Shown here piece after piece: positions 25,218 through 41,200 of a DNA stretch of 64,000 bases (within the stretch, counting starts at the first letter, position 1; every line of letters begins with the position of its first letter). The notes beneath the pieces were generated by a model. It was not told the origin of the DNA. It saw only the letters and a program-made list of their open reading frames with translations, and did no database searches. Source of the stretch: Acidobacteriota bacterium (GTDB lineage: Bacteria > Acidobacteriota > Terriglobia > Bryobacterales > UBA6623); assembly GCA_016125275.1 (NCBI GenBank), contig WGMB01000017.1:186001-250000 (forward strand), written 5' to 3'. Made by a program: the position numbers and the translations under genes.

Positions 25218-25424
25218 TCAGTCGCTCAGCGAGAAAATCTCCTCGACGGGGACGTTGAAGTATCGCGCGATCTTCAGCGCGACCACCGTCGAGGGGATGA
25301 ACCGACCGACTTCGATCGTGCTGATCGTCTTCCGCGAGACCCCTATGCCGTCGGCAAGCTCGGCCTGACTGATGCGACGTTCGGCCCGAAACACACGAAT
25401 GCGGTTCTCGAGCTCGTCGCTCAT
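25218..25424 (-). CDS. XRE-family helix-turn-helix regulator
   Basis: The 68-aa protein consists almost entirely of one Cro/CI-type HTH (ISQAELADGIGVSRKTISTI, recognition helix VSRKTISTIE). The tail YFNVPVEEIFSLSD is typical of YozG-like small regulators. Its ATG overlaps the stop of the upstream membrane-protein gene (ATGA at 25421-25424), so both are made from one transcript starting near 25900. Such two-gene units with a small membrane protein are common, and the regulator usually represses its own operon. The paired palindromes at 25910-25946 are the likely operators. Confidence 0.88.
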   Translation of the reverse strand: MSDELENRIRVFRAERRISQAELADGIGVSRKTISTIEVGRFIPSTVVALKIARYFNVPVEEIFSLSD

Positions 25425-25885
25425 GCCGCCGGCTCGTGATCGTTCGACCGGCCAGCCACAAAGCTCAGGGCGAAGTAGCAGAGACTGAACACCGCCGTCA
25501 GTGAGATTCCCGGCAGTTTGATGAAGAAGTCGGCCGGGAGATCGGTATGGTTCGCCGCGCCGTCGAGGAACGCGACGAAGCAGAGGGTGGTCAGGAAGGC
25601 GATCGACGCCGACCGTTTGAGCGCGTCAGTGACGAAGTCATCCTGAAAGGCCCGACGCCCCGCCTCCCTCCGGCGCTGCTTGAGAGGGCGGGCCAGAATC
25701 ATCGCCACGACAAGGAGGACCAGGCCGGCGCGGGCGGGCCACTGCGCCCAAGCGCGCAGGCGGTCGCCGGCTCCCTCATCGAGGAGATAGGCTCCGGCCT
25801 CCATGGTCAGATTGACCGAAAACAGAAACAAGATCAGGACGATCCAGTTCGTGTACCGCTCGAAAGCACTCGCAAGAGAAGCCAT
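25421..25885 (-). CDS. Small four-helix membrane protein, partner of XRE regulator
   Basis: The 154-aa protein has four predicted transmembrane helices: NWIVLILFLFSVNLTMEAGA, ARAGLVLLVVAMILARP, SIAFLTTLCFVAFL and LTAVFSLCYFALSFVAG. A basic cytoplasmic loop (KQRRREAGRR) lies between helices two and three. It resembles membrane proteins that accompany small XRE regulators (DUF2178-like), whose function is unknown. Of two adjacent ATGs, the one at 25885 has GGAGG six bases upstream and is preferred. It is the first gene of the operon. The pair interrupts the space between the M16 gene and its relic, so it may be an acquired module. Confidence 0.7.
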   Translation of the reverse strand: MASLASAFERYTNWIVLILFLFSVNLTMEAGAYLLDEGAGDRLRAWAQWPARAGLVLLVVAMILARPLKQRRREAGRRAFQDDFVTDALKRSASIAFLTTLCFVAFLDGAANHTDLPADFFIKLPGISLTAVFSLCYFALSFVAGRSNDHEPAA

Positions 25886-25909
25886 CATTCGCCTCCAGGA
25901 CTCTCAAAC

Positions 25910-26132: not shown

Positions 26133-29100
26133 ATGCAATTTTCCATGCGCCCGCGTTCATGCCTAGCCGCCGCCTTCTGGCTGATCCTCACCTGCGGCCA
26201 ACCACTAGCCGCGCAGTCGCCGATCACCCAGGTCTCCGTAGGCGCGTCTCATGTTCTCGCGCTCCGGGAGGATGGATCCGTCCTCAGTTGGGGCGCCAAC
26301 CAGTTCGGCCAACTAGGCGACGGCACAAGGGTCAACCGCACGGGCGCCGTTCTCGTGCCGGGGTTGACGGACGTTCTCGCGGTGTCCGCGGGCTCCACCA
26401 GCGTGGCCGTCCGCCGGGACGGTTCCGTGTGGCAGTGGGGACGCCCCTCGGCCGATCCATCGCTCATCGACAATGCGCCGGTTCAGATCGAAGGTCTCAA
26501 CGGCATCGTGGCCGTGGAAACCGGCGACCTCGGCTCGATCGCGTTAGGAGCTGACGGCGCCGTCTGGACTTGGCCCCATTTCGGAACGCCCGAGGCAAAG
26601 CCGAGCTTGGCCGGGGTCGTAAAGATCAACCTGTTCGCCCGCATCGCGCTCGCGCTCGCGAGCGATGGGACAGTCTGGCGATTCGGGAACGGACAGGGCG
26701 GGTTCGACGGCCCTGCATTGATCATCGATGGTCTGACTGACGTTGCGGACATCGCAGCCGGGACCAATCACTTCCTTGCGCGAACGCGGGATGGCTCCGT
26801 CTGGACGTGGACCAGTCCCGATTTCGGAGCAACCATGAGCGTTCCCGTGCCAGTCCCAGACCTCGGGGACGTCTCTGCTTTGTCAGCCGGCGACGACTTT
26901 AGTGCGGCGTTGCGAAGCGACGGAACCGTGCTCACCTGGGGTGACAATCTTTTCGGACGGCTGGGCGCGGGTCTACCGCCGGGCGACTACGGGGACTCCG
27001 CGCGCTATCCCCCGGCGCCGGTCGTCGGACTGACGGGCGTATCTTCGCTCGACCTTGGCCGCTACCAGGGAATTGCGGTGCTCCCGGGAGGGAGCGTCCG
27101 AGTGTGGGGATCCGGGGCTTTCGGCCATTTCGGCGACGGCACGACAGCATCCCGCACCCTGCCCGTCCGAGTTGGCGGCCTGCACGGAATTACGCGCCTT
27201 GCCGCCGGACCGACCTTCGCGCTCGCCCTCGGCGACGATCGCCGAGTTTGGTCGTGGGGAGTCAACCGTTCGGGAGAAGTCGGGGATGGCACGACGACGC
27301 CCCGGCTCGCGCCGGCCCCGGTCAGCTCTCTGATGGGAATCGCCGACATAGCAGCCGCGGCAGCCTCGAGCTTGGCCGTGACGACAAGTGGCGACCTCTA
27401 CGGCTGGGGTGAAAACAGCTTCGGCCAACTCGGCGGCGGCGCAAGCTCCGTGGCGTCGGTTCTCATCCCGTCAGCCTCCACTGCTCTTCCTGCGCTATCC
27501 CAGGCAAAAATCGGCTACTGGCACGGTCTCGGCCTCGATCGCGACGGCGCCGTCTGGACCTGGGGCTACAACCGATGGGGTCAACTCGGCAACGGAACCA
27601 CAATAGACACAGCGACCCCGGCCCCTGTCGCGGGACTCGCCTCGGTAACGGCGATAGCAGCAAGCCCCGCCGGGAGCGCCGCCCTTCGATCCGATGGCTC
27701 GCTTTGGACTTGGGGGCGTGATCCTTCCGGAGGACCGGATCTCACGGTTCCCACGATGGTCGCCGGTCTGACCAACGTGGTCGCAATGGCGTCATCCGGC
27801 AGCCACATCCTGGCGCTGAAAGATGACGGGAGCCTGTGGGCTTGGGGCGACAATACATATGGGCAGTTGGGCAATGGCCATACCGGAGCGAGCCCGGTTC
27901 CCAGTCCTGTCATCGGGTTGGCTAGGCCGGTTCTAGGGATTTCGGCCGGCGAGGGCCATAGTCTGGCCGTGCGTGAGGACGGTACGGTTTGGGCCTGGGG
28001 CTTTGGTGAATACGGCGCGCTCGGCAACGGCGGCAGCGACAATCGACCGCAACCGACCCTCGTGCCCGGCCTCGCAGGCGCAGTGGCCGTAGAAGCGGGA
28101 CCCAACTTCAGCTTCGCGCAGATGGAAGATGGAACGGTCTGGGCTTGGGGCGACGATTCAACCGGCCAACTCGGCCAGAACGAGAGCTACGTCGAGAACA
28201 CTCCGATCCCCGGCGGGAAATACCTGACCCAGACGGCCATCAAGATGCTGACGCCGGCCGCAGGCGCCCCCGGCAAGCCGTACCTGGTCTCTTTCAGCGT
28301 CACATCATGGGCCGGTGACCCGACCGGCAACGTCACGATCAACGACGGGGCTCACTCCTGCTTGGCAACCGTTCAGGCCGGCGCATGCGAGCCGATTGCC
28401 CCGTCCACGCCCCATCCGATCGTGACCGCGCACTACGAGGGCGACAGCAGGTTCGCATCCAGCTATGACCTGGCGCCCTATCCCACGGAGGCCGCCGGCC
28501 TCCCCGGAGCCTCCAAGCCCGGCTTCTATCGCGAGGGCCTCTGGAGCCTCGACGTCAATGCCGACGGAGTCTTCGAAACAGGCACGGACCGAAGCTTCTT
28601 CCTCGGTTTTCCCGGAGCCCAGCCGGTCCGTGGAGACTGGGACGGCGACGGCCGTACCGATGTCGGGGTGTTCGCCGCAGGCTATTGGTTTCTTGACTAC
28701 GACGGCGACGGCCATTGGGACGGAGGAACCAATGACAAGCAGTTCGCCTTCGGTTGGGCCGGCGTAACGCCCGTCGTCGGAGACTGGAACGGCGACGGCC
28801 GCGATTCCGTCGGCGTCCATTCCAACGGGTTCTGGTTCCTGGACTACGACGGCGACGCGCTCTGGGATGGCGGAACGACCGACAAGGTTTTCGGTTTCGG
28901 CGGTTGGGACGGCGTCGAGATCCAGATCGGCGACTGGAATGGCGACGGGCGCGACAAGCTCGGCCTGTACGCAAATGGGTTCTGGTTTCTCGACTACGAC
29001 GGCGACTACGTCTGGGATGGCGGAACCGTCGACAAGATCTTCCCGTTCGGCTGGGCCGGTGCGAAGCCCTTGGTCGGGAACTGGAACGGCGATGGTCGCG

Positions 29101-29378
29101 ACGCAGTCGCCGTCTACGCCAATGGCTTCTGGTTCTTCGACTACGACGGCGACTCCCTCTGGAACCCCTCCGGAGCTGACCGCACCTTCGGCCTGGGATG
29201 GCCCGGCGCCCAAGTCGTCGTGGGCGACTGGAATGGAGACGGCCACGACAAAGCCGGCGTCTTCGGCGCCGGCAACTGGTTTCTCGACTACGACGGCAGC
29301 GGAACCTGGAACCCGCTCATCGACGTCGTGACAGCCTGGGGCCGGCTCGGAGACATCCCGTTTCCCGGGGTCTGGTAG
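26133..29378 (+). CDS. Secreted RCC1-repeat giant propeller protein, first of four paralogues
   Basis: The 1081-aa protein has a Sec signal (RPRSCLAAAFWLILTCGQ, ending PLAAQ). Fourteen RCC1 repeats follow, counted by their W-G positions from VLSWGANQF to VWAWGDDST, enough for two seven-bladed propellers. Next comes a bacterial Ig-like domain with two cysteines (SFSVTSWAGDPTGNVTINDG). The end is six ~47-residue blades of the type GNGFWFLDYDGD...WDGG...VGDWNGDGRD. Each blade carries DxDxDG- or DxNxDG-like loops suited to calcium. No anchor or sorting domain is seen. The role is unknown; binding or adhesion outside the cell is plausible. An in-frame ATG at 26145 is an alternative start. Confidence 0.88.
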   Translation: MQFSMRPRSCLAAAFWLILTCGQPLAAQSPITQVSVGASHVLALREDGSVLSWGANQFGQLGDGTRVNRTGAVLVPGLTDVLAVSAGSTSVAVRRDGSVWQWGRPSADPSLIDNAPVQIEGLNGIVAVETGDLGSIALGADGAVWTWPHFGTPEAKPSLAGVVKINLFARIALALASDGTVWRFGNGQGGFDGPALIIDGLTDVADIAAGTNHFLARTRDGSVWTWTSPDFGATMSVPVPVPDLGDVSALSAGDDFSAALRSDGTVLTWGDNLFGRLGAGLPPGDYGDSARYPPAPVVGLTGVSSLDLGRYQGIAVLPGGSVRVWGSGAFGHFGDGTTASRTLPVRVGGLHGITRLAAGPTFALALGDDRRVWSWGVNRSGEVGDGTTTPRLAPAPVSSLMGIADIAAAAASSLAVTTSGDLYGWGENSFGQLGGGASSVASVLIPSASTALPALSQAKIGYWHGLGLDRDGAVWTWGYNRWGQLGNGTTIDTATPAPVAGLASVTAIAASPAGSAALRSDGSLWTWGRDPSGGPDLTVPTMVAGLTNVVAMASSGSHILALKDDGSLWAWGDNTYGQLGNGHTGASPVPSPVIGLARPVLGISAGEGHSLAVREDGTVWAWGFGEYGALGNGGSDNRPQPTLVPGLAGAVAVEAGPNFSFAQMEDGTVWAWGDDSTGQLGQNESYVENTPIPGGKYLTQTAIKMLTPAAGAPGKPYLVSFSVTSWAGDPTGNVTINDGAHSCLATVQAGACEPIAPSTPHPIVTAHYEGDSRFASSYDLAPYPTEAAGLPGASKPGFYREGLWSLDVNADGVFETGTDRSFFLGFPGAQPVRGDWDGDGRTDVGVFAAGYWFLDYDGDGHWDGGTNDKQFAFGWAGVTPVVGDWNGDGRDSVGVHSNGFWFLDYDGDALWDGGTTDKVFGFGGWDGVEIQIGDWNGDGRDKLGLYANGFWFLDYDGDYVWDGGTVDKIFPFGWAGAKPLVGNWNGDGRDAVAVYANGFWFFDYDGDSLWNPSGADRTFGLGWPGAQVVVGDWNGDGHDKAGVFGAGNWFLDYDGSGTWNPLIDVVTAWGRLGDIPFPGVW

Positions 29379-29410
29379 CGAAACATGGCCGTTGGCCGCC
29401 CGGAAATCGA

Positions 29411-29416
29411 TATTAT
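29411..29416 (+). promoter_or_regulatory. -10-like element (TATTAT) of second RCC1 gene
   Basis: TATTAT ends eight bases before an in-frame GTG at 29425, which begins a good signal peptide with the same MRL opening as the third and fourth paralogues. A leaderless transcript is inferred. Confidence 0.45.
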
Positions 29417-29424
29417 TGGCTTGC

Positions 29425-32400
29425 GTGCGCCTGATCCACTTCGCCCAACCCTTCTTTCTCGTCGCGCTGCTGCTGGCAAATTTCCATGCCCATGCCGGCG
29501 CCGCCCAACCCGTCTTCACAAAGCTGTCCGCCGGGCCATACCACACCCTGGCCGTGCGGCAGGACAACTCGCTGGTCAGTTGGGGAGACAATGACTTCGG
29601 CCAGCTTGGCGACGGCACCCGGATCAGCCGAACCGGAGCGGTCCTGGTCAGCGGACTGACCAACGTCAGCTCGGTTTCCGCCGGTCGCTCAGTCAGCCTG
29701 GCTCTCAAGGGCGACAGCACCGTCTGGCAATGGGGCGCGATCTATTCCGGCGACCCCTACACCAACAACGCCGCCTCTCCGGTGCAGGTGACGGGTTTGG
29801 GCGGCGTCCCGACGGCGGTCGCGGCCGGCGATGACCACCGCTTTGCGCTGATGACCGACGGCTCCGTGTGGATGTGGACGAATACGCAGGCTCCGGCGCC
29901 GATCGCCGGCCTGACCAATATCTCCCGCATCAGCATCTACAGCCGCATCCTGCTCGCGCGCAAGACCGACGGGACGGTTTGGAAGTGGGGCTCGGACTCG
30001 CAGAACACTCCCGTCGGCGCCCCGACGCAGGTCAGCGGCATCACAGCCGCGTCCGACGTCGCCGCCGGCGCGGACCACTACCTCGTCCTGCTCTCGAACA
30101 ACACCGTCGTCGGTTGGGGCAATGACAGCCGCGGCCAGATCACCGGCTCCACCGGAGGCCCCATCAACATCACCATCCCCACGGCCGTACCGAACCTCAA
30201 CAGCGTGCAGAGCCTTACGGCCGGCCTGCTCTACAGCGCCGCGCTGCGGTCGGACAACAGCGTGTGGGCCTGGGGCGACAACCGCGCCAAGCAGCTCGGC
30301 GCGGGCGTGGCGGGTTCCGTCTCTCCCCCTGTCGCCGTCACGGGTCTCACCGGCGTCTCCGCCGTCGACATCGGCGAGAGCCATGCGGTTGCGCTGGTTT
30401 CCGGCGCGGTCAAGGCCTGGGGATCGAATCACCAAGGCCAGCTCGGCGACGGCTCCACCGGCGAATACGACAAGCCCATGCGGGTCGGCGGCCTGTCCAA
30501 CATCGCCGAGATCGCCGCGCGCTCGCACCACACCTTGGCCCGCGGCGCGGGCGGCGGCCTGTCTTCCTGGGGAGACAACGAGAACGGCCAGCTCGGCGAC
30601 GGCACGACGACCGATCGCCTCGCCCCCGTCTCCGTTGTCGGGCTCAGCGGCGTAACCGGCATGGCGACCGGCGGCGAGTTCAGCCTGGCCACCAAGAACA
30701 ACAACACATCCGCCGGCTGGGGCGGCAACTTCTGGGGACAGGTCGCCGACGGCACCACGACCCGCCGGCTCAGCCCCGTCAACGCGAGTAGCATCATCGG
30801 CGTCACGAAGGTGTCGGCCGGCGAAGGACACGGCCTGGCCATCAAACCCGCGGGCAACAACACCGTCGTAGCTTGGGGCGAGAACCTCGACGGCCAGCTC
30901 GGCGACGGAACCGTCGTCAGCCGCAAGACCCCTGCAACGATTCCCGGCCTGTCCAACATCTCCGAGATTTCCGCCGGCTGGTGGTACAGCATGGCCCGCC
31001 AGTCCAACGGAGCGGTCTGGGCCTGGGGCGAGAATTCGGCCGGCCAAGTCGGCAATGGAGGAACCACTGACGTGCTCTCGCCCGTGCAAGTGCTCTCCAA
31101 CGCCAAGACCATCGCCGCCGGCGTGGATCACACCTTGGCTGTGACCAACGACGGCGCGGTGTGGGCTTGGGGTGACAACTCCTTCGGCCAACTCGGCGAC
31201 GGCACGACCACGCAGCGTCTGTTTCCGGTGAAGCTCCCCGCATTCCCGGAAGGCGCCGTGGGCGTCGCCGCGGGCGAGCGGCACAGCTTGGCGGTGCTCG
31301 AAGACGGTACGGTCTGGGCCTGGGGCTCCGACATCACGGGCCAGCTCGGCGACGGCGCGGCGCCGAAGCAACTGACCCCGGCGCAGCTCGCGGGCCTGTC
31401 GGGCGTCGCATCGGTCAAGGCCGGCCTGTACCACAGCGTGGCGCTGCGCAACGACGGCACGGTTTGGAGCTGGGGCGCCGATCCTGACGGAGAGGTCGGC
31501 CAGAACGCCACCCACCTCGAGCCGACGATCATCACCGGCGGTAAATACTGGACCGACACCGCCATCACGATGGTCACGCCCATGACGGGACTGCCCGGGG
31601 CCCCCTATCTTGTGTCGTTCAGCGTCACTTCCTGGGCCGGCCAGCCCACCGGCAACGTCACGATCAGCGACGGCGTACAGTCCTGCGTAGCCTCGGTGCA
31701 AACGGGCTCCTGCGTTATCACCGCCGGGTTTACGGCGGAACCGATCCTGACGGCCCTTTACCAGGGCGACAACGACTTCGCGTCCAGTTACGATCTGGCG
31801 CCCTACACGGTGGACACGACCGGCGCCACGAATACGGCTGACAAGCCCGGCATCTATCGCTCCGGCCTCTGGCAATTGGACGTGAACGGCAGCGGAGCCT
31901 TCGAAAACGGTACGGACTTGAGCTTCTTCCTCGGTTTCGGAGGCGCACAGCCCCTCGTCGGCGACTGGGACGGCGACGGCCGCAAAGAAGCCGGCGTGTT
32001 CTCCAACGGCTTCTGGTTCCTCGACTATGACGGCGACGGCTTCTGGGACGGCGGAACCGTCGACAAGCTCTACGGCTTCGGTTGGGCCGGAGCGACCCCT
32101 CTGGTGGGCGATTGGGACGGCGACGGCCGCGATTCCGTCGGGGTCTACTCCAACGGCTTCTGGTTCCTGGAGTACAACGGCGACTATCAGTGGGATGGCG
32201 GCGTCAACGACAAGATCTTCGGTCTCGGCTGGCCCTCGGCTCAGCTCGTGATCGGCGACTGGAACGGCGATGGCCGCGATAAGGTCGGCGTCTTCTCGGC
32301 GGGTTTCTGGTTCCTCGACTATGACGGCAGCTACAGCTGGGACGGCGGCGTCAACGACAAACAGTTCGGCTTCGGCCAGGCCGGCGTCCTGCCCCTGGTG

Positions 32401-32706
32401 GCGGACTGGAACGGCGACGGTCGGGATTCCGTCGGGTTCTATTCGCAAGGTTTCTGGTTCCTCGACTACGACGGAAACACCCTTTGGACCCCCGGCGCCC
32501 CGGACCGCGTTCTCGGGCTCGGCGGCTGGAACGGAGCCATTCCCGTCATCGGGGATTGGAACGGCGACGGCCGCAAGAAGGCAGGGGTGTTCAGCTCTGG
32601 GACGTGGTTCCTGGACTTCGATGGAAGCGGTTCTTGGAACGCGAGCATTGATCGCGTGTTGAATTGGGGAACGGCCGGCGATCAGCCTTTCGTTGGACGT
32701 TGGTAG
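29425..32706 (+). CDS. Secreted RCC1-repeat giant propeller protein, second of four paralogues
   Basis: The 1093-aa protein has a Sec signal (MRLIHFAQPFFLVALLLANF, cleavage near HAGAAQ). It carries fourteen RCC1 repeats, from LVSWGDNDF to VWSWGADPD, then an Ig-like domain (SFSVTSWAGQPTGNVTISDG) and six calcium-loop blades ending in LNWGTAGDQPFVGRW. The GTG at 29425 is chosen over the TTG at 29392 because it follows a -10-like TATTAT by eight bases and gives the MRL start shared with its paralogues. It begins 46 bases after the stop of the first paralogue. The function is unknown; export and extracellular binding are inferred. Confidence 0.86.
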   Translation: MRLIHFAQPFFLVALLLANFHAHAGAAQPVFTKLSAGPYHTLAVRQDNSLVSWGDNDFGQLGDGTRISRTGAVLVSGLTNVSSVSAGRSVSLALKGDSTVWQWGAIYSGDPYTNNAASPVQVTGLGGVPTAVAAGDDHRFALMTDGSVWMWTNTQAPAPIAGLTNISRISIYSRILLARKTDGTVWKWGSDSQNTPVGAPTQVSGITAASDVAAGADHYLVLLSNNTVVGWGNDSRGQITGSTGGPINITIPTAVPNLNSVQSLTAGLLYSAALRSDNSVWAWGDNRAKQLGAGVAGSVSPPVAVTGLTGVSAVDIGESHAVALVSGAVKAWGSNHQGQLGDGSTGEYDKPMRVGGLSNIAEIAARSHHTLARGAGGGLSSWGDNENGQLGDGTTTDRLAPVSVVGLSGVTGMATGGEFSLATKNNNTSAGWGGNFWGQVADGTTTRRLSPVNASSIIGVTKVSAGEGHGLAIKPAGNNTVVAWGENLDGQLGDGTVVSRKTPATIPGLSNISEISAGWWYSMARQSNGAVWAWGENSAGQVGNGGTTDVLSPVQVLSNAKTIAAGVDHTLAVTNDGAVWAWGDNSFGQLGDGTTTQRLFPVKLPAFPEGAVGVAAGERHSLAVLEDGTVWAWGSDITGQLGDGAAPKQLTPAQLAGLSGVASVKAGLYHSVALRNDGTVWSWGADPDGEVGQNATHLEPTIITGGKYWTDTAITMVTPMTGLPGAPYLVSFSVTSWAGQPTGNVTISDGVQSCVASVQTGSCVITAGFTAEPILTALYQGDNDFASSYDLAPYTVDTTGATNTADKPGIYRSGLWQLDVNGSGAFENGTDLSFFLGFGGAQPLVGDWDGDGRKEAGVFSNGFWFLDYDGDGFWDGGTVDKLYGFGWAGATPLVGDWDGDGRDSVGVYSNGFWFLEYNGDYQWDGGVNDKIFGLGWPSAQLVIGDWNGDGRDKVGVFSAGFWFLDYDGSYSWDGGVNDKQFGFGQAGVLPLVADWNGDGRDSVGFYSQGFWFLDYDGNTLWTPGAPDRVLGLGGWNGAIPVIGDWNGDGRKKAGVFSSGTWFLDFDGSGSWNASIDRVLNWGTAGDQPFVGRW

Positions 32707-32795
32707 CGGCAGAGCCCGCCTCACGGCCGGCTCTCCGTCAATTCGTTCGCTCTGTAGTTTAGAGAGAATTTATCGATATATGAGTTGGCAGGTGG

Positions 32796-32801
32796 GATAA
32801 T
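32796..32801 (+). promoter_or_regulatory. -10-like element (GATAAT) of third RCC1 gene
   Basis: GATAAT ends nine bases before the TTG at 32811, which gives an MRL-type signal peptide. A second TTG at 32805 is closer and less likely. Confidence 0.35.
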
Positions 32802-32810
32802 TCATTGACA

Positions 32811-35030
32811 TTGAGACTGCTGGTTTTCTTCTGCATCGTCTTTGCCGGACAACTCGCCATTGGGGCCCAGCCTCAAGTCACACAGGTGGATGCCGGCGGC
32901 TTTCACACCTTGGCTCGAAGGTCGGATGGCGCCGTATTGAGTTGGGGCGCCAATGAGAGCGGCCAACTCGGCGATGGAACCGTCATCGATAGGCCCGCGG
33001 CCGTCCAAGTCCAGGGCCTCTCCAGTGTGCTGGCTGTCGCAGCAGGCGGAAGTCACAGTCTGTCTCTCCAGCAGGATCGGACGGTCAAGAGCTGGGGGAG
33101 CAACGTCTCCGGACAACTCGGTGACGGCACGAACGCCGGCCGCCCCCTACCCGCAACCGTCCCCGGCCTCACGAACATAGCGGCGATCGCGGCGGGGGGC
33201 AGCCATAGTCTGGCCCTCGCGCTCGACGGCAGTGTCTGGACCTGGGGCTCCCTCGTTCTGTCTCCGCAGCGAGTCACCGGCCTGCCGATGATTTCCGCCA
33301 TTGCCGCCGGTTCGGACCACAGCCTCGCCATCGATGCCGCGGGCAACGTCTGGACCTGGCGAGCCAACCCGATCTTCGGCGGCGAATTGCCGCAACTGAT
33401 CGGCGCCCCGACTCCCGTGCAAGTCACCGGACTGAGCAACATCAAGGAAGTCGCCGCCGGCTTCCAATACAGCCTGGCCCTCGGGCAGGACGGCCGCGTT
33501 TGGGCCTGGGGAATGAACTTCTACGGCCAACTCGGCGATGGGACCACCAACGCCGCCGGAGCGCCCGTGCAGGTCACGGGTTTGACCGGGATTCAGGATG
33601 TGGCGGCCGGATGGTTCCACGGCCTCGCCCGAGACGGCAACGGCGAGATTTGGGCCTGGGGCGACAACAGCGACGGCCAACTCGGCGACGGCTCCACGAC
33701 TCGTCGCTCAACACCCGTGAAGATTCAGGGCTTGCAGGGCGTTGGAACCATTGACGCCGGGGCCGCCCACAGCGTCGCTCTGTGGTCCGACGGCGCCATC
33801 CAAAGCTGGGGCCTGGACCTCGACGGCCAACTCGGCGTGGGCGGCTCCGCCGGCCACTCGACGCCTGTCTCGGCCGGTGGATACCTCACGCAAACCACGA
33901 TCTCGCTGCTGACTCCCGTCCAGGGGGTTCTCGGGCAGCCTTATGTCGTGTCCTATGGAGTGTCATCCTGGGCCGGAACGCCCACGGGCAGCGTAACCGT
34001 CTCCGACGGCGGCCAACAATGCAGCGCCACGGTCCAAGCGGGTTCCTGCACACTGACGGCCGGCACGAGCGGACCGCGGCAAGTGAAGGCGGCCTATTCC
34101 GGCGACGGGGTCTTTGCCGCCAGCGCCGCCACAGCAAGCTATTTCGTTGACGCCTCGTCGACGTCGGCCGACAAGCCCGGTTTCTACCGCGGCGGCATCT
34201 GGCGCTTCGATGTCGACGGCAGCGGCTCCTTCGAGCCGGGAACCGACCGCAGCTTCGCCCTTGGCTTTCCGGGAGCAACCCCGCTTTCGGGCGACTGGAA
34301 CGGCGACGGCCGCGACCAGGCCGGCGTCTACGCCAACGGCTTCTGGTTCCTCGACTACGACGGCAACGGCGTCTGGGACGGCGGCGCGGCCGACAAGCTC
34401 TACGGCTTCGGATGGAGCGGGGCGACGCCGGTTGTCGGCGACTGGGACGGCGACGGCCGCGATTCGGTCGGAGTCCATTCCAACGGCTTCTGGTTCCTGG
34501 ACTACAACGGCGACTTCACGTGGGACGGCGGCTCGTCCGACAAGGTGTTCGGCCTGGGTTGGCCGGGGGCGACGCTGATCGTCGGCGATTGGAACGGCGA
34601 CGGCAGGGACAAGGTCGGGGTCTTCGCCACCGGCTTCTGGTTCCTCGACTACGACGGCAGTTACAGTTGGGACGGCGGGGTCAACGACAAACAGTTCGGC
34701 CTCGGCTGGGCGGGCGTGCAGCCTGTAATCGGCGACTGGAACGGCGATGGCCGCGACTCGGCCGGAGTCTACGCCGGCGGCAACTGGTTCCTGGACTACG
34801 ACGGCGACCGCGTTTGGACCGCCCAGCAAGACCGCACGATCTCGCTCGGATGGACCGGCGCCGTACCGGTCATCGGAGACTGGAACGCGGACGGCCGCGC
34901 CAAGGTGGGGCTGTTCTCCGCCGGCTCCTGGTTCCTGGACTTCGACGGCAGCGGAGCCTGGGAGGCCGCCAAGGATCGCATTGTGGACTGGGGACTACCG
35001 GGAGATATTCCGGTCGTGGGCGCTTGGTAA
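32811..35030 (+). CDS. Secreted RCC1-repeat protein with one propeller, third of four paralogues
   Basis: This 739-aa paralogue has a Sec signal (MRLLVFFCIVFAGQLAIGAQ) and only seven RCC1 repeats, from VLSWGANES to IQSWGLDLD: exactly one propeller, where its neighbours have two. The Ig-like domain (SYGVSSWAGTPTGSVTVSDG) and six C-terminal blades are complete, ending in VDWGLPGDIPVVGAW. The reading frame is intact, so the shorter length reflects loss (or lack of duplication) of a whole seven-blade unit. The start is a TTG; 32811 is preferred to 32805. The function is unknown. Confidence 0.86.
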   Translation: MRLLVFFCIVFAGQLAIGAQPQVTQVDAGGFHTLARRSDGAVLSWGANESGQLGDGTVIDRPAAVQVQGLSSVLAVAAGGSHSLSLQQDRTVKSWGSNVSGQLGDGTNAGRPLPATVPGLTNIAAIAAGGSHSLALALDGSVWTWGSLVLSPQRVTGLPMISAIAAGSDHSLAIDAAGNVWTWRANPIFGGELPQLIGAPTPVQVTGLSNIKEVAAGFQYSLALGQDGRVWAWGMNFYGQLGDGTTNAAGAPVQVTGLTGIQDVAAGWFHGLARDGNGEIWAWGDNSDGQLGDGSTTRRSTPVKIQGLQGVGTIDAGAAHSVALWSDGAIQSWGLDLDGQLGVGGSAGHSTPVSAGGYLTQTTISLLTPVQGVLGQPYVVSYGVSSWAGTPTGSVTVSDGGQQCSATVQAGSCTLTAGTSGPRQVKAAYSGDGVFAASAATASYFVDASSTSADKPGFYRGGIWRFDVDGSGSFEPGTDRSFALGFPGATPLSGDWNGDGRDQAGVYANGFWFLDYDGNGVWDGGAADKLYGFGWSGATPVVGDWDGDGRDSVGVHSNGFWFLDYNGDFTWDGGSSDKVFGLGWPGATLIVGDWNGDGRDKVGVFATGFWFLDYDGSYSWDGGVNDKQFGLGWAGVQPVIGDWNGDGRDSAGVYAGGNWFLDYDGDRVWTAQQDRTISLGWTGAVPVIGDWNADGRAKVGLFSAGSWFLDFDGSGAWEAAKDRIVDWGLPGDIPVVGAW

Positions 35031-35180
35031 GGGTTGGCCCGCCTCGGCCCGAAACATTTCTTACACAAAATGTTCGATGGCCGACGATTTCAGACGCGCC
35101 GCTAGCTTAGACTATCCTTGCTGATTCCAACGTCGCATTTTGCATTCCCGCAAAGGCGATTCAATCAGCTTGTGATATTG

Positions 35181-38100
35181 ATGCGCCTACCATTGCTTGC
35201 AGCCTCCCTTTGCTTTGCTTTATTGGAAGGAGGCGGCCCGGCCTGGGCCGCCCAACCCAAGATCGTCAAAATCGACGCCGGTGGATTCCACACCCTGGCT
35301 CTTCGCGAAGACGGCTCCGTCGTCAGTTGGGGCCACAACGAGTTTGGCCAACTAGGCGACGGAACCACGGACTTCCGCACCGGGGCCGTTCTGGTCTCGG
35401 GATTGTCGGATGTCGTCGAAATCGCAGGCGGATGGGGCCATAGTCTGGCCGTCCGGCAAGATGGCAGCGTCTGGGCATGGGGCGCCAATTACCAAGGTCA
35501 ACTTGGCGATGGCACGACAATCAACCGGCTAACGCCCGTCCGAGTGCCGGGTTTGACCGGTGTGGTTGCGGTTGCAGCAGGTCGTGACCACAGCCTTGTC
35601 GCCACAGCATCCGGGGCCGTTTGGGCCTGGGGGCTGAACAACAATCAACAAGTCAGCGACGGCTCGTATCAGGCTTCGAACGGGCCGATCCTCGTGCCGG
35701 GGCCCGGAAACGCCATCGCCGTGGCCGCCACCCTCATGTCCAGCTATCTCCTGACAAGCTCAGGGGAAATTTGGGCATGGGGCGCCCCGGACAATGCAGC
35801 TCCACACTCCTTGCCGGCCCGATTCTCCGACTTGACGAACGTGGTCGCTATCAGCGCCGGATTCAATCACGCGATTGCCTTACGCGCCGATGAAACCGTC
35901 TGGGCCTGGGGCGGCAATTCACACGGACAGATCGGAGACGGCAGTGTGAGTGTGTACAGCAGCCCGGTTCAAGTCCCCGGCTTTCAGGACTGCAAAGCGG
36001 TCGCCGCGGGCCATTGGTTCAGCGTCGCGTTGACCAAGGGCGGCGAGATCTGGGCCTGGGGCTGGAACAGCCTCCAACAGATCGGAGAGGCGCAGCCCAT
36101 GGACGTACTCACTCCCGTTCGGATTCCCATCCCAGGATCGGTCGCGTCCGTAGCTGCCGGCGCCGCCCATACCTTGGCAGTGACCCAAAGCGGCGCCGTC
36201 AGCGGGTGGGGTTGGAATGCTTATGGTCAGATTGGCGCGGGGACCGCCGCCGTCCACCGGCTTCCGATCCAAGTCGATACGACTCAAAGGTTTTCGGCGC
36301 TCGCCGGGCCAGGCGGACAGGGCAGATTCAGCTTGGCGCTGGACACCGCCGGAAACGCTTGGGCTTGGGGTGACAACAAAGAGGGACAACTCGGAGACGG
36401 GACGCACACATCGCGCGCAACACCGAAAGCGGTCCCCGGAGCTCAGGGGCTCACGGCGCTCGCCGCAGGCGGAGGTCACGGCCTCGGGTTGACCGACGCC
36501 GGCGGAATCTTGGGCTGGGGCCGCAATTTCAACAGGCAACTCGCCGACGGGACGCAGGATGAACGCGATGCTCCCGTGGAGGCGATCATTCCGATCAGCG
36601 CGATCGCCATTGGCGCCGGGCAAGATGACAGCTTTGCCATTACCGCCGACGGAGCCCTCTGGGCCTGGGGCAACAACAGCTACGGCGCCCTTGGCAACGG
36701 ATCCAACACCCAGGTCGCGACTCCCCTCGAGGTCCCTGGACTCACTGAAGTCCTCGGTGTACATGGAGGCTACAGTCATAGCCTTGCAGTCACGAAGAAT
36801 GGCGTTGCCTGGAGTTGGGGCTACAACGAGTACGGCCAACTCGGCCAAGGCTCCATGGTCGACCTCTACTCTCCGGGCCCGGTGAGCTCCCTCGGCGAAA
36901 CCAAGGCCGTAGCGGCAGGGAACCTGCACAGTCTCGCGCTGGGCAGCGATGGGACCGTCTGGGGATGGGGCTACAATGGCCGCTCCCAGCTCGGCGTAAG
37001 CGGAATCGACCGGAGCAAGACCCCCATCCCGATCCCTGGTCCGGCCGGCGTCACGTTCATCGCCGCTCCGGGGGAACAGAGCGTAGCGGTCACCGACAGC
37101 GGCGAAGTGTGGACCTGGGGCGGTTCTGCCTTTGCCCTTCTCTCCGAACAAGTCTCTCTGGGCCCCGACATCCCAAGTCCCATTCCGGGCATGAACGGCG
37201 TGGTCGCCGCCTCCGGCGGTCTGTACCACGCCCTGGCTCTCCGAGAGGACGGCTCTATCTGGAGTTGGGGCGCGGACTTCGAGGGCCAGTTGGGAATTGG
37301 CGGCAATCAAGGAAGGGAAGGCGCCCCCGTCCCCGGCGGCAAATACCTCACCGAAGTCGCCATCACCATGACCACTCCGCAGACCGGCGTCTTTGGCGCG
37401 CCCGTCCTGGTCTCCTACGAAGTGAAATCCTGGGCCGGCGCGCCGACGGGCAAGGTCACCGTCGCCGACGGCGATCACGTCTGCGTGGACTCCGGGCCGA
37501 AGGGCTCTTGCGAGATCACCCCTGCCCTGCCCGGCCATCGCGTCCTCACCGTGCGCTACGAAGGGGATGACACCTTCGCTCCCAGCTACAACATCGCCGG
37601 CTACAAGGTCGAACCCGGCGCCGTCTCCCCCGGCGGCGACGCCGTCGCCTACTATCGCGCCGGCCTGTGGCGCGCCGACGTCAACGCCAGCGGAGTCTTC
37701 GATCCGGGCATTGACCGCAGCTTCGCACTCGGTTTCCCCGGAGCCACCCCCGTCAGCGGCGACTGGAACGGCGACGGACGCCGCGATGTGGGAGTCTTCG
37801 CCAACGGATTCTGGTTCCTCGACTACGACGGCAACGGCCAATGGGACGGCGGCGTCGCCGACAAGCAGTTCCCCTTTGGCTGGACAGGCGTGACGCCCCT
37901 GGTCGGCGACTGGGACGGCGACGGCCGCGACTCCGTCGGCATCCATGCCAACGGCTTCTGGTTCCTCGACTACGACGGCGACACGCTTTGGGACGGCGGA
38001 ACCGTCGACAAGTCCTTCGGCTTCGGCGGCTGGCCGAGCGCACAGCTCGTCATCGGCGACTGGAACGGCGACGGCCGCGACAAAGCCGGCCTCTACTCCG

Positions 38101-38504
38101 AGGGATCGTGGTTCCTCGACTACGACGGCGACTACGTCTGGGACGGCGGAACTGTCGACAAGCTCTTCGGCTTCGGCTGGACCGGCGCCCAACCCGTGGT
38201 CGGCGACTGGGATGGCGACGGCCGCGACTCCGTCGCGGTCTATTCCGAAGGAAACTGGTTCCTGGACTACGACGGCGACGCCGTCTGGAATCTCAGCGGC
38301 GCGGACCGCGTCTTCGGCCTCGGCTGGACCGGCGCGGAGACCGTCGTCGGCGACTGGAACGGCGATGGCCGCGACAAGCCCGGCGTCTTCAGCTCCGGGA
38401 CCTGGTATCTCGATTTCGACGGCAGCGGCACGTGGAACCCGATGCTCGACCGCGTCTTCACCTGGGGGCAGGCCGGCGATACGCCGTTCGTGGGAGCTTG
38501 GTAA
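35181..38504 (+). CDS. Secreted RCC1-repeat giant propeller protein, fourth of four paralogues
   Basis: The 1107-aa protein has a Sec signal (MRLPLLAASLCFALLEGGGP, cleavage near AWAAQ), fourteen RCC1 repeats from VVSWGHNEF to IWSWGADFE, an Ig-like domain (SYEVKSWAGAPTGKVTVADG) and six blades ending in FTWGQAGDTPFVGAW. The ATG at 35181 is preferred to the TTG at 35118 because it begins the signal peptide and matches the MRL start of the other paralogues. The ceramidase-like gene begins 16 bases after its stop and may be co-transcribed. The function is unknown. Confidence 0.87.
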   Translation: MRLPLLAASLCFALLEGGGPAWAAQPKIVKIDAGGFHTLALREDGSVVSWGHNEFGQLGDGTTDFRTGAVLVSGLSDVVEIAGGWGHSLAVRQDGSVWAWGANYQGQLGDGTTINRLTPVRVPGLTGVVAVAAGRDHSLVATASGAVWAWGLNNNQQVSDGSYQASNGPILVPGPGNAIAVAATLMSSYLLTSSGEIWAWGAPDNAAPHSLPARFSDLTNVVAISAGFNHAIALRADETVWAWGGNSHGQIGDGSVSVYSSPVQVPGFQDCKAVAAGHWFSVALTKGGEIWAWGWNSLQQIGEAQPMDVLTPVRIPIPGSVASVAAGAAHTLAVTQSGAVSGWGWNAYGQIGAGTAAVHRLPIQVDTTQRFSALAGPGGQGRFSLALDTAGNAWAWGDNKEGQLGDGTHTSRATPKAVPGAQGLTALAAGGGHGLGLTDAGGILGWGRNFNRQLADGTQDERDAPVEAIIPISAIAIGAGQDDSFAITADGALWAWGNNSYGALGNGSNTQVATPLEVPGLTEVLGVHGGYSHSLAVTKNGVAWSWGYNEYGQLGQGSMVDLYSPGPVSSLGETKAVAAGNLHSLALGSDGTVWGWGYNGRSQLGVSGIDRSKTPIPIPGPAGVTFIAAPGEQSVAVTDSGEVWTWGGSAFALLSEQVSLGPDIPSPIPGMNGVVAASGGLYHALALREDGSIWSWGADFEGQLGIGGNQGREGAPVPGGKYLTEVAITMTTPQTGVFGAPVLVSYEVKSWAGAPTGKVTVADGDHVCVDSGPKGSCEITPALPGHRVLTVRYEGDDTFAPSYNIAGYKVEPGAVSPGGDAVAYYRAGLWRADVNASGVFDPGIDRSFALGFPGATPVSGDWNGDGRRDVGVFANGFWFLDYDGNGQWDGGVADKQFPFGWTGVTPLVGDWDGDGRDSVGIHANGFWFLDYDGDTLWDGGTVDKSFGFGGWPSAQLVIGDWNGDGRDKAGLYSEGSWFLDYDGDYVWDGGTVDKLFGFGWTGAQPVVGDWDGDGRDSVAVYSEGNWFLDYDGDAVWNLSGADRVFGLGWTGAETVVGDWNGDGRDKPGVFSSGTWYLDFDGSGTWNPMLDRVFTWGQAGDTPFVGAW

Positions 38505-39856: not shown

Positions 39857-41200
39857 CTACACGTCCGGCAGCGCCCAGGGCTTGCGGTACTCGTAGTGCA
39901 GCAGAGCGTTGGCTTCGCGGTGGTTGGTGAACTCTTCCTTCTCGGCGTCCCATTCCAGGGCTTCGCCGGTCTTCAGCGCGATGTTCGCCAACAGCGTCGC
40001 CGAGGTCGACCGGTGGCCGGTCTCGATGTCTGCGTTGCACTGCGCGCGGCTCTTCACGCAGTCCAAGAAGTTTCGCGTGTGGTGCTCCGTCCCGCGGGGG
40101 CCTTTCTCCACCAGCTTCGGCTCGATCAGAGTCTTGGCGTCCTTGCGCCAGCCCTTCTCGGTCTCGCGATCGAGCGGCGTGCGGGCGAAGCGATTCTTCT
40201 CCTGAATCACCTCCGGCACGATTTCGTACCCGGCTGAGTAGGCGTAGAGCGTCCCCTTGGCGCCGCGAAAGTCGAACTCCTGACCCTTGCCCGGCTGCGC
40301 GCCGTTGGCGTTGATCTGGTCAAAGCTCACCAGCGCCTTGTCGTACTCCCAGATCACCTTGGCCGTATCGGGAATCTCTCGGTTGTCCTGCACCGCGTAG
40401 ACTCCGCCGAAGGCCGCCACCCGCTTCGGCACCCGCTGCCCCAAGCTCCACTGGATCATGTCCAGGTAGTGCACGCCCATGTTCGTGATCTGGCCGCCCG
40501 AGTAAGGGAAGAACCAGCGGAACCGGTAGAACGTCTTGTTGACGTTGTACGGCTCCTCCGGCGCCGGCCCCATCCACAGATTCCAGTCCACGTCGGCCGG
40601 CGGAGCCGAGTCGGCCGGGTTGCCGATGCCGTTGGGCCAGTCGTTGGCGATGTAGTAGGCCTCCGCCGCGCTGATGGGGCCGAGCCCTCCCTCGCGGCAG
40701 GTCCGGGCGATCTCCGCGCACCAAGGCAGCGACCGTCGGTGAGTGCCCACCTGCACCACGCGCTTGTAGCGCTCCGCTGCTTGGACCATCCGCCGGCCTT
40801 CCACCACGGTCAGCGACAGCGGCTTCTCCACGTAGACGTCCAGGCCCTTCTGGCACGCCTCGATCATCATGATCCCGTGCCAGTGGTCCGGCGTACAGAT
40901 CACCGCCGCGTCGAGCCCCTTCCTGTCCAACAGCTTGCGAAAGTCTTGATAGCGCGTCCGCTCGCCGCGCTTCGCCGTGCGCTCATAGTGATAGTCCATG
41001 TAGTCGCGGCGCAGGTCGCACAGCGCGTCGATCTGGCTGTCGGAGTGCTCCAGGAAGGCGTCGAGCACCTGGTCGCCGCGATTGCCCAAGCCGATGAAGC
41101 CCAGGCTCACGCGGTCGTTCGCGCCCAGCACGCGGGAGTAGCTCAGGGCGGTCAACCCGGCCGCCGTGGCGGAGGAGCGGAGGAAGTCTCGGCGGCGCAT
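39857..41200 (-). CDS. Tat-exported Gfo/Idh/MocA-family oxidoreductase
   Basis: The 447-aa protein has a Tat signal (MRRRDFLRSSATAAGLTALS). The N-terminal Rossmann domain shows GFIGLGNRG (~33-41), followed by CTPDHWHG and the family EKP motif in VEKPLSLTVVEG; the C-terminal domain carries the usual GVHYLDMIQWSLG. Exported members probably keep a tightly bound NAD(P), as glucose-fructose oxidoreductase does, and often act on sugars or sugar acids. The ATG at 41200 lies seven bases after a -10-like element. It is divergent from the sulfatase gene. Confidence 0.9.
   Translation of the reverse strand: MRRRDFLRSSATAAGLTALSYSRVLGANDRVSLGFIGLGNRGDQVLDAFLEHSDSQIDALCDLRRDYMDYHYERTAKRGERTRYQDFRKLLDRKGLDAAVICTPDHWHGIMMIEACQKGLDVYVEKPLSLTVVEGRRMVQAAERYKRVVQVGTHRRSLPWCAEIARTCREGGLGPISAAEAYYIANDWPNGIGNPADSAPPADVDWNLWMGPAPEEPYNVNKTFYRFRWFFPYSGGQITNMGVHYLDMIQWSLGQRVPKRVAAFGGVYAVQDNREIPDTAKVIWEYDKALVSFDQINANGAQPGKGQEFDFRGAKGTLYAYSAGYEIVPEVIQEKNRFARTPLDRETEKGWRKDAKTLIEPKLVEKGPRGTEHHTRNFLDCVKSRAQCNADIETGHRSTSATLLANIALKTGEALEWDAEKEEFTNHREANALLHYEYRKPWALPDV

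What the first reader, a model, noticed from the sequence alone, without database searches (positions are those of the whole stretch)
26133..38504. Array of four giant secreted RCC1 / Ig / calcium-blade proteins
Four adjacent same-strand paralogues (739-1107 aa) combine a signal peptide, RCC1 propellers, one Ig-like domain and six C-terminal blades. RCC1 is best known from eukaryotic chromatin regulators; exported bacterial multi-propeller versions are poorly described. They lie beside exported hydrolases and carry no anchor or known sorting signal, so how they leave the cell and what they bind are open questions.
Basis: partly seen in the sequence, partly recalled or inferred. Interest (0 to 1): 0.7.

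Follow-up and report, generated by a model that had tools for sequence, protein, structure and literature searches.

The report
RCC1 propellers on a lectin-like tail
Four neighbouring bacterial genes encode apparently exported proteins whose front halves are ring-shaped RCC1 propellers and whose shared tail is a second propeller related to a bacterial sugar-binding lectin; the same tail is reused on nine other proteins of the genome, which suggests, without proving it, a common way of attaching different proteins to a surface sugar.

Summary
Four same-strand ORFs (26133-38504) each have a signal-peptide-like N-terminus, RCC1 repeats (14, 14, 7, 14: two, two, one, two seven-bladed propellers), one Ig-like domain and a six-bladed C-terminal propeller. 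They are the only RCC1 proteins found in the genome. AlphaFold2 gives closed propellers for C (tail alone pLDDT 93.8, 24 strands). It occurs in 13 proteins of this genome, at the exact C-terminus in 10 and directly after the signal peptide in 3; elsewhere it is mostly C-terminal too, sometimes behind wall- or glycan-processing enzymes. Its nearest solved relative by sequence (E 1.3e-11) and structure (Z 20.3, rmsd 2.8 A, 265 aligned) is the UmbA4 lectin of Streptomyces umbrella toxins, solved with a teichuronic-acid-like glycan; the blade position of UmbA4's tested sugar-contact aromatics is Trp in 78 of 78 own-genome blades. RCC1 heads have diverged more than tails, and head and tail trees of the four genes conflict. 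Best reading: RCC1 recognition heads on a multivalent glycan-binding tail that retains them at a surface. Ligands are untested. New variant of a known kind.

The parts
26133..29378 (+). gene A, 1081 aa: signal peptide, 14 RCC1 repeats, Ig, six-bladed tail
26133..26213 (+). A: signal-peptide-like N-terminus, by eye (alternative start ATG 26145)
   Evidence: sequence
26223..27179 (+). A: RCC1 propeller 1 (repeats 1-7)
27180..28223 (+). A: RCC1 propeller 2 (repeats 8-14)
28224..28520 (+). A: Ig-like domain (Big_3_5, below Pfam cut-off)
28521..29375 (+). A: six-bladed C-terminal lectin-like propeller
29392..32706 (+). gene B, 1104 aa: same architecture, two RCC1 propellers (start uncertain)
29512..30492 (+). 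B: RCC1 propeller 1
30493..31545 (+). B: RCC1 propeller 2
31546..31845 (+). B: Ig-like domain (below Pfam cut-off)
31846..32703 (+). B: six-bladed tail
32805..35030 (+). gene C, 741 aa: one RCC1 propeller, Ig, tail; folded whole
32874..33881 (+). C: single RCC1 propeller, 7 repeats
33882..34175 (+). C: Ig-like domain (Big_3_5, over cut-off)
34176..35027 (+). C: six-bladed tail; folded alone as window:34116-35027, pLDDT 93.8
35118..38504 (+). gene D, 1128 aa (possible start ATG 35181): two RCC1 propellers, Ig, tail
35259..36284 (+). D: RCC1 propeller 1
36285..37343 (+). D: RCC1 propeller 2
37344..37646 (+). D: Ig-like domain (below Pfam cut-off)
37647..38501 (+). D: six-bladed tail

Best explanation
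Each protein crosses the inner membrane by the Sec pathway (inferred from the signal-peptide-like N-terminus) and reaches the cell surface or matrix, perhaps through the type II secretion system whose secretin the genome encodes. The tail folds into a six-bladed, probably calcium-stabilised VCBS-type propeller with lectin pockets between blades. Up to six similar pockets grip a repeating surface or matrix polysaccharide multivalently and hold the protein there. The Ig domain is a spacer. One or two seven-bladed RCC1 propellers face outward and bind a partner, protein or glycan, that differs between paralogues. The genome uses the same tail on 13 proteins found here, so the tail acts as a common address and the heads as variable specificities. 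Shown by computation: domain order, fold (for C), homology to a bacterial glycan lectin, reuse, terminal position, faster head divergence, head/tail tree conflict. Inferred: glycan binding, the ligand, surface retention, calcium, route of export, what the heads bind.
For: A 50-row profile of the tail finds one PDB sequence at E <= 0.1, UmbA4 (9oee_A), E 1.3e-11. VIA-align: 9oee_A Z 20.3, rmsd 2.8, 265 aligned, 20% identity; then GlcNAc lectins of the PVL type at Z 14.8-15.9; other propellers at or below 12.5. UmbA4 was solved with its teichuronic-acid-like receptor; W668A, Y551A and N633A lowered activity (PMC13274773, section 12). The position of Y551 (and, by equal spacing, W668) aligns to the Trp of the GxWFLDY motif, which is Trp in 78 of 78 blades of 13 own-genome tails; one UmbA4 blade has Ser there, so the fold does not demand an aromatic. 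The GW loop that forms sugar pockets in PVL and tachylectin-2 (PMC8023676, passages) is aromatic in 62 of 65 own loops scored, Trp in 39. Tail on 13 own-genome proteins with RCC1, FG-GAP_2, Big_5, DUF7948/SBBP or unrecognised heads. Elsewhere it ends within 30 residues of the C-terminus in 88 of 99 ORFs. Ten hand-picked relatives include heads GH25, SpoIID, NAGPA, polysaccharide deacetylase, Rv2525c-like and CAP; Amidase_2 in 3 of 42. dN between equivalent head propellers 0.52-0.72, between tails 0.18-0.26. A gspD over cut-off is present.
Against: No ligand is shown. Fold and homology do not prove sugar binding, and UmbA4 uses only two of six pockets. With the four window tails alone the UmbA4 hit was weak (E 0.0077), and Foldseek's 50 listed rows did not include it. 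The Trp may be kept for structure: the same motif is common in tails of other taxa. The GW loop is aromatic in only 37 of 151 loops of 37 other rows, so the pocket may not be family-wide. Other heads (metallophosphatase, reprolysin, MauE, SdrD_B) are not wall-specific. Synonymous divergence is also lower in tails (dS 0.71-1.05 against 1.07-1.97 in propeller 1), so their constancy may partly be gene conversion. No functional partner stood out among ten neighbours scanned at seven of the nine other loci.
Confidence: 0.5

Rival explanations
1. The tail is a folding cap or a secretion/sorting signal (for example for type II secretion), not a lectin; its terminal position reflects recognition by an export machine.
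For: Terminal position across phyla (88 of 99 ORFs within 30 residues; 29 of 29 ORFs of order relatives with a visible stop within 9 residues). Shared by unrelated heads. A gspD is present.
Against: In 3 of 13 own-genome proteins the module sits at the N-terminus after the signal peptide, and 11 of 99 ORFs elsewhere are not terminal. It also occurs in archaea and Actinobacteria, which lack a Gram-negative-type outer membrane (general knowledge). It is homologous to a lectin propeller with a shown ligand.
Confidence: 0.2
2. Soluble antagonism or defence: the tail targets foreign cells as UmbA does, while RCC1 heads are inhibitors or decoys in the manner of BLIP-II.
For: Closest solved tail relative is an interbacterial targeting lectin. 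BLIP-II is a secreted RCC1-type inhibitor (PMC9218822, passages). Heads are diversified.
Against: No toxin or immunity family was seen in the four proteins or in the 20 flanking genes scanned with Pfam; UmbB and UmbC were not searched for. Array tails are 65-74% identical to one another, unlike the diversified UmbA lectins. No trypsin-like domain.
Confidence: 0.15
3. Scavenging: the proteins hold hydrolases or substrates (sulfated or lipid-linked glycans) near the cell, working with the adjacent ceramidase, sulfatase and peptidase genes.
For: Neighbouring hydrolase genes. A Gfo/Idh/MocA gene lies near the array (39857-41200) and also upstream of one other tail gene, L127; the family is common, so this is weak.
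Against: In four same-family genomes the M16 pair was found with no match to the array or to the downstream genes in the DNA fetched (two of those stretches end at a contig edge, 3.7 and 8.1 kb in all). Ten neighbours at seven other tail loci are otherwise of different families.
Confidence: 0.1
4. Eukaryote-directed RCC1 effectors (Ran-pathway mimics) of a protist- or plant-associated bacterium.
For: RCC1 fold close to UVR8, HERC2, RPGR and RCC1. Legionella RCC1 effectors exist (PMC7157520, search listing only).
Against: Signal-peptide-like N-termini and extracellular-type Ig and tail domains do not fit injected effectors. UVR8 rather than RCC1 is the nearest fold.
Confidence: 0.03

Closest known systems
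UmbA4 of Streptomyces umbrella toxins (PDB 9oee), C-terminal six-bladed lectin propeller
   Same: Six blades, C-terminal, exported; tail profile hits it at E 1.3e-11; Z 20.3 over 265 residues; same aromatic position; conserved DxDxDG-type loops
   Different: UmbA has a trypsin-like N-terminal domain and joins UmbB/UmbC; here RCC1 heads and Ig. UmbA4 pocket positions diverge between blades (PMC13274773); here five blades per window tail are alike (median 59-65% identity over 34 aa) and keep the Trp
PVL / PAL / AAL2 fungal GlcNAc lectins
   Same: VCBS-type propeller with DxDxDG loops and GW pocket loop (PMC8023676, passages); Foldseek E from 9.6e-6, Z 14.8-15.9
   Different: Seven blades, fungal lectins, about 11-12% identity
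RCC1/BLIP-II propellers (UVR8, RCC1, HERC2, BLIP-II)
   Same: Seven-bladed RCC1 repeats; C head aligns to UVR8 at rmsd 2.1 with target-normalised TM 0.84
   Different: Apparently exported, one or two propellers in tandem, fused to Ig and lectin-like tail; BLIP-II itself was not compared here
VCBS-core prokaryotic multi-propeller proteins with Ig domains (PMC8023676)
   Same: Signal sequence, several propellers, Ig-like domains (passages)
   Different: 'RCC1' does not occur in that paper's main text; genome-wide reuse of one tail was not in the passages seen
RCC1 + same tail in Geomobilimonas luticola (L051) and in G125 (L149)
   Same: L051: 14 RCC1 repeats then the tail, 991 aa. L149: 20 RCC1 hits then the tail, 2187 aa
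   Different: Different lengths and linkers; L051 has hardly room for an Ig between repeats and tail

Membership tests
RCC1/BLIP-II propeller | RCC1 repeats over the curated Pfam cut-off | tested here: met
   All four proteins, 189 to 345.5 bits against 21.7
RCC1/BLIP-II propeller | Repeats in sevens forming a closed seven-bladed propeller | tested here: met
   14, 14, 7, 14 repeats; C modelled with a seven-bladed head matching UVR8; A, B, D not modelled
RCC1 (Ran exchange factor) | Guanine nucleotide exchange on Ran | not testable with these tools
   -
VCBS / FG-GAP propeller supercluster | DxDxDG-type loop in the blade | tested here: met
   GDWNGDG-type loop five times in each of 13 own-genome tails
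VCBS / FG-GAP propeller supercluster | Pfam FG-GAP_3 over its cut-off | tested here: not met
   19.4, 20.7, 19.8 bits in A, C, D against 26.9; none in B. In own-genome L134 it is over the cut-off (29.3), and in L046 (37.7)
Six-bladed glycan lectin (UmbA4-type propeller) | Sequence and fold homology to the UmbA4 propeller | tested here: met
   E 1.3e-11 with the 50-row profile (0.0077 with four rows); Z 20.3, rmsd 2.8, 265 aligned
Six-bladed glycan lectin (UmbA4-type propeller) | Sugar-contact aromatic at the inter-blade pocket | tested here: met
   Trp at the aligned position in 78 of 78 blades; by sequence alignment only, and it may be structural
Six-bladed glycan lectin (UmbA4-type propeller) | Glycan binding | not testable with these tools
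   No binding data
UmbA (umbrella toxin subunit) | N-terminal trypsin-like domain | tested here: not met
   No such Pfam match in the four proteins at E <= 0.1
PVL-type lectin | Seven blades | tested here: not met
   24 strands, six blades
T9SS cargo | NCBIfam C-terminal sorting domain (TIGR04183) | tested here: not met
   No NCBIfam match at E <= 0.1 in the four proteins
T9SS cargo | SprA translocon in the genome | tested here: inconclusive
   PF14349 gave nothing, but the control genomes did not ring either

The most novel reading that the evidence does not exclude
The genome runs a glycan-addressed display system: one interchangeable six-bladed lectin tail, usable at either end of the chain, places at least 13 different proteins (single or double RCC1 propellers, FG-GAP_2 propellers, Big_5 strings, others) on its own exopolysaccharide or envelope, and recombination swaps heads between tails. 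It would be a sugar-based analogue of LPXTG or T9SS sorting without a dedicated enzyme. Supporting hint: of the three possible trees for the four genes, propeller 1 supports AB|CD (the others rejected, AU p about 0.003) and the tail supports AD|BC (AB|CD rejected, AU p 0.005), and tails of A and D group with FG-GAP_2-headed proteins elsewhere in the genome.
Probability: 0.3. Interest if true: 0.7.

Novelty: new variant of a known kind. Interest (0 to 1): 0.48.

Why it matters
It gives a testable function to a widespread, poorly named tail of large bacterial and archaeal proteins, links it to a lectin whose ligand is now known, and proposes how proteins without a lipid or covalent anchor stay on a surface. 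If the tail binds one glycan, it would also be a handy affinity tag and would explain how extracellular RCC1 propellers are deployed.

Tried and rejected
Phage, plasmid and mobile origin: the tail has no match in 50,697 phage records and matches 3 of 72,556 plasmids, each at under 32% identity. Rejected as far as these collections go.

Conserved operon with the flanking genes: in four same-family genomes the upstream M16 pair is conserved (one also has the 260-aa upstream gene), but the array and downstream genes were not found beside it; two of those stretches end at a contig edge, so this is partial. Recurrent partner genes next to other tail genes: ten neighbours chosen from seven of nine loci were scanned. 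Only a Gfo/Idh/MocA gene recurs (beside L127 and near the array). One tail-first gene (L132) follows a glycosyltransferase and a methyltransferase gene.

Simple tandem duplication of whole genes: the propeller 1 and tail trees conflict. Propeller 2 (with C's single propeller standing in) and the Ig domain do not decide between trees. Patchy local identity in tails (up to 0.88 over 75 nt) points to old conversion tracts, so head swapping and conversion cannot be told apart. The tests use four sequences of a repeat protein, so misaligned repeats could mislead.

KICSTOR, BBSome and Tc-complex propellers: KICSTOR chains rank high in Foldseek by E-value but with TM 0.44-0.46 and rmsd over 6; VIA-align puts them at Z 10.3-10.7. 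Taken as generic propeller likeness. UV-B sensing by the UVR8-like head: not pursued.

Counts and rows dropped: one weak own-genome tail match (C14:496015, E 1e-4) gave no ORF with two strict motifs and was left out of the 13. Two spurious unit hits in the Ig domains of A and C were left out of the RCC1 counts. In one search only ORFs with a visible stop were counted, some loci giving more than one; one order-relative ORF (L042) open at its end was left out of the 29. 50 module rows went into the model and the tree, 42 proteins into the Pfam tally, of whose 69 families 25 were shown, and ten short proteins, mostly from Actinomycetota, picked by hand, into (eight of these are also among the 42). 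L131, L132 and L133 were fetched cut short. Relatives were found by motif patterns, so blade conservation in that set is biased upward. Signal peptides were judged by eye, and only in the 13 own-genome proteins. The phylum of the genome was not tested; Bryobacteraceae-like Acidobacteriota is a guess from named tail relatives and the type of neighbouring genes.

Literature searches behind statements on print.
Full report
What is there. Four same-strand ORFs fill 26133-38504: A (1081 aa), B (1104), C (741) and D (1128; 1107 from the ATG at 35181). Each starts with a signal-peptide-like stretch, continues with RCC1 repeats, has one Ig-like domain (Big_3_5, over the Pfam cut-off only in C) and ends with a six-bladed propeller. 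A profile of their own repeats counts 14, 14, 7 and 14 RCC1 units, i.e. two, two, one and two seven-bladed propellers. All 32 RCC1 matches at E <= 0.001 in the 7.55-Mb genome fall in these four ORFs. Among 150 genomes searched (own genome included) 25 have RCC1, and none of the 17 same-family relatives does. The array is therefore a real feature of this lineage, not chance.

Structure. The tail of C in an alignment of 50 sequences gave a model of pLDDT 93.8 and pTM 0.89 with 24 strands, six blades of four. Whole C gave pLDDT 87.5 and pTM 0.53: a seven-bladed head, an Ig sandwich, six blades, with domain orientation uncertain. The head matches UVR8 (Foldseek E 2.4e-31, rmsd 2.1, TM 0.84 by target length) and then HERC2, RPGR and RCC1.

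The tail is the informative part. A profile of the four tails finds 13 proteins in the genome (plus one weak match left out). In 10 (A-D, L126-L130, L134) the tail ends exactly at the stop codon; in L131, L132 and L133 it follows directly on the signal peptide and precedes Big_5 domains. Other heads are FG-GAP_2 repeats (L126, L127, L128), DUF7948/SBBP (L134) and unrecognised (L129, L130). All 13 show a signal-peptide-like N-terminus by eye. Among 150 genomes searched (own included) 52 have a tail match at E <= 0.001; 8 of 17 same-family relatives match only weakly, the best 6.4e-16 over a fragment. In a collection of 84,980 species genomes at least 414 stretches encode a relative; the best 80 came from Planctomycetota, Bryobacteraceae, Geobacteraceae, Anaerolineae, Actinomycetota, methanogenic archaea and others. 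In those loci the tail ends within 30 residues of the protein's end in 88 of 99 ORFs with a visible stop, and in 29 of 29 such ORFs of order relatives within 9. Whether these relatives are exported was not tested. RCC1 plus tail occurs also in Geomobilimonas luticola (L051) and in G125 (L149).

What the tail is. The 50-row profile finds one PDB sequence at E <= 0.1: 9oee_A, E 1.3e-11; the profile of the four window tails alone gave 0.0077. By structure 9oee_A stands clear at Z 20.3 (265 aligned, rmsd 2.8, 20% identity), then GlcNAc lectins of the PVL type at 14.8-15.9, then other propellers at 12.5 and below. Foldseek's own E-value list had put KICSTOR and PVL lectins first and did not show 9oee_A among its 50 rows. 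9oee_A is UmbA4, whose six-bladed propeller binds a teichuronic-acid-like polymer at pockets between blades; changing Trp668, Tyr551 or Asn633 lowers activity (PMC13274773, outline, passages and section 12). An offset of 31 is the only one from 0 to 44 that puts Tyr at 551 and Asn at 633 in the printed chain; Tyr551 then aligns with the Trp of our GxWFLDY motif, and Trp668 has the same spacing from its GD motif (the letter at 668 itself was not printed). That Trp is present in 78 of 78 blades of the 13 own tails, whereas one UmbA4 blade has Ser there. The VCBS supercluster motifs described in PMC8023676 (passages) are present: the DxDxDG-type loop, five strict copies per tail, and the GW pocket loop, aromatic in 62 of 65 own loops, Trp in 39, against an aromatic residue in 37 of 151 loops of the other 37 rows. 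Within each window tail five blades compared over 34 residues are 47-76% identical, median 59-65%.

Heads elsewhere. Ten hand-picked tail proteins carry GH25 muramidase, SpoIID, NAGPA phosphodiester glycosidase, polysaccharide deacetylase, CAP (twice), an Rv2525c-type glycoside-hydrolase-like domain, but also MauE, a metallophosphatase and a reprolysin-type protease. In 42 proteins the commonest families were SdrD_B (12) and other sandwich domains; CAP and Amidase_2 occur in 3 each. Enrichment of wall and glycan enzymes is an impression from a chosen set, not a tested result.

Constant tail, variable head. Between the four genes, equivalent RCC1 propellers differ at dN 0.52-0.72 and tails at 0.18-0.26; dS is 1.07-1.97 for propeller 1 and 0.71-1.05 for the tail, so lower tail divergence is partly lower synonymous change too. 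Quartet tests give AB|CD for propeller 1 (others AU p 0.003) and AD|BC for the tail (AB|CD AU p 0.005); Ig and propeller 2 are undecided. In the 50-row tree own tails are clustered (2 changes against a shuffled mean of 11.6, 0 of 500 shuffles as low), but not one clean clade; A and D group with the FG-GAP_2 proteins L126-L128. Head swapping or gene conversion can both give this.

How it most likely works. Export by Sec; further passage possibly by type II secretion (one gspD over cut-off; route untested). The tail grips a polysaccharide through several similar pockets and retains the protein at a surface or matrix; RCC1 heads provide changing binding faces, as RCC1-type BLIP-II does for its targets (PMC9218822, passages). 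Homology and fold are shown; ligand, calcium, location and head partners are inferred. Confidence 0.5.

Known or new. Secreted RCC1-type propellers are known: BLIP-II and a surfome RCC1 protein with a T9SS domain (PMC5682007, passages). Multi-propeller exported VCBS proteins with Ig domains are known in outline. I did not find the RCC1-Ig-tail design, the reuse of one lectin-like tail by 13 proteins or its likeness to UmbA4 described in the searches, which cover open-licence papers only and of which I saw listings and the passages named. Verdict: new variant of a known kind, interest 0.48.

Noticed in passing
L056, L058, L065, L067, L068, L069, L070, L075, L076, L077, L079, L093, L097, L101, L114 (planctomycete tails, alignment A3): All 15 planctomycete tails of one supported clade share an insertion of 26-46 residues (39 in most; typically with a GLPD and a KNxPP motif) after the second GDWNGDG loop aligned; role unknown.
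   Followed up: partly
L048:5470-9983: Three consecutive or overlapping tail-bearing ORFs in Bryobacteraceae MAG TGS_ACI2; the two placed in the tree are very close.
   Followed up: no
L132:3232-7986: A tail-first Big_5 protein gene follows same-strand genes for a methyltransferase protein and a 994-aa glycosyltransferase protein.
   Followed up: partly
L103:4159-9786: Two Nitriliruptoraceae ORFs with 9-10 blade motifs each, as if the tail were doubled.
   Followed up: no
G104 contig C1 (e.g. L137): A 9.5-Mb genome of the same order carries RCC1 repeats in open frames of up to 3891 codons at several loci.
   Followed up: no
L150 (G095 contig C8): Two neighbouring same-strand ORFs of 1190 and 1270 codons with 14 RCC1 repeats each but without the tail: RCC1 arrays occur elsewhere in the order.
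   Followed up: partly
window 25421-25888 (-): A 155-aa ORF without Pfam match at E <= 1e-5 lies divergently upstream of the array.
   Followed up: no
window 43893-47183: CarboxypepD_reg plus OMP_b-brl_4 outer-membrane barrel protein, of the Oar-like kind (label recalled).
   Followed up: no
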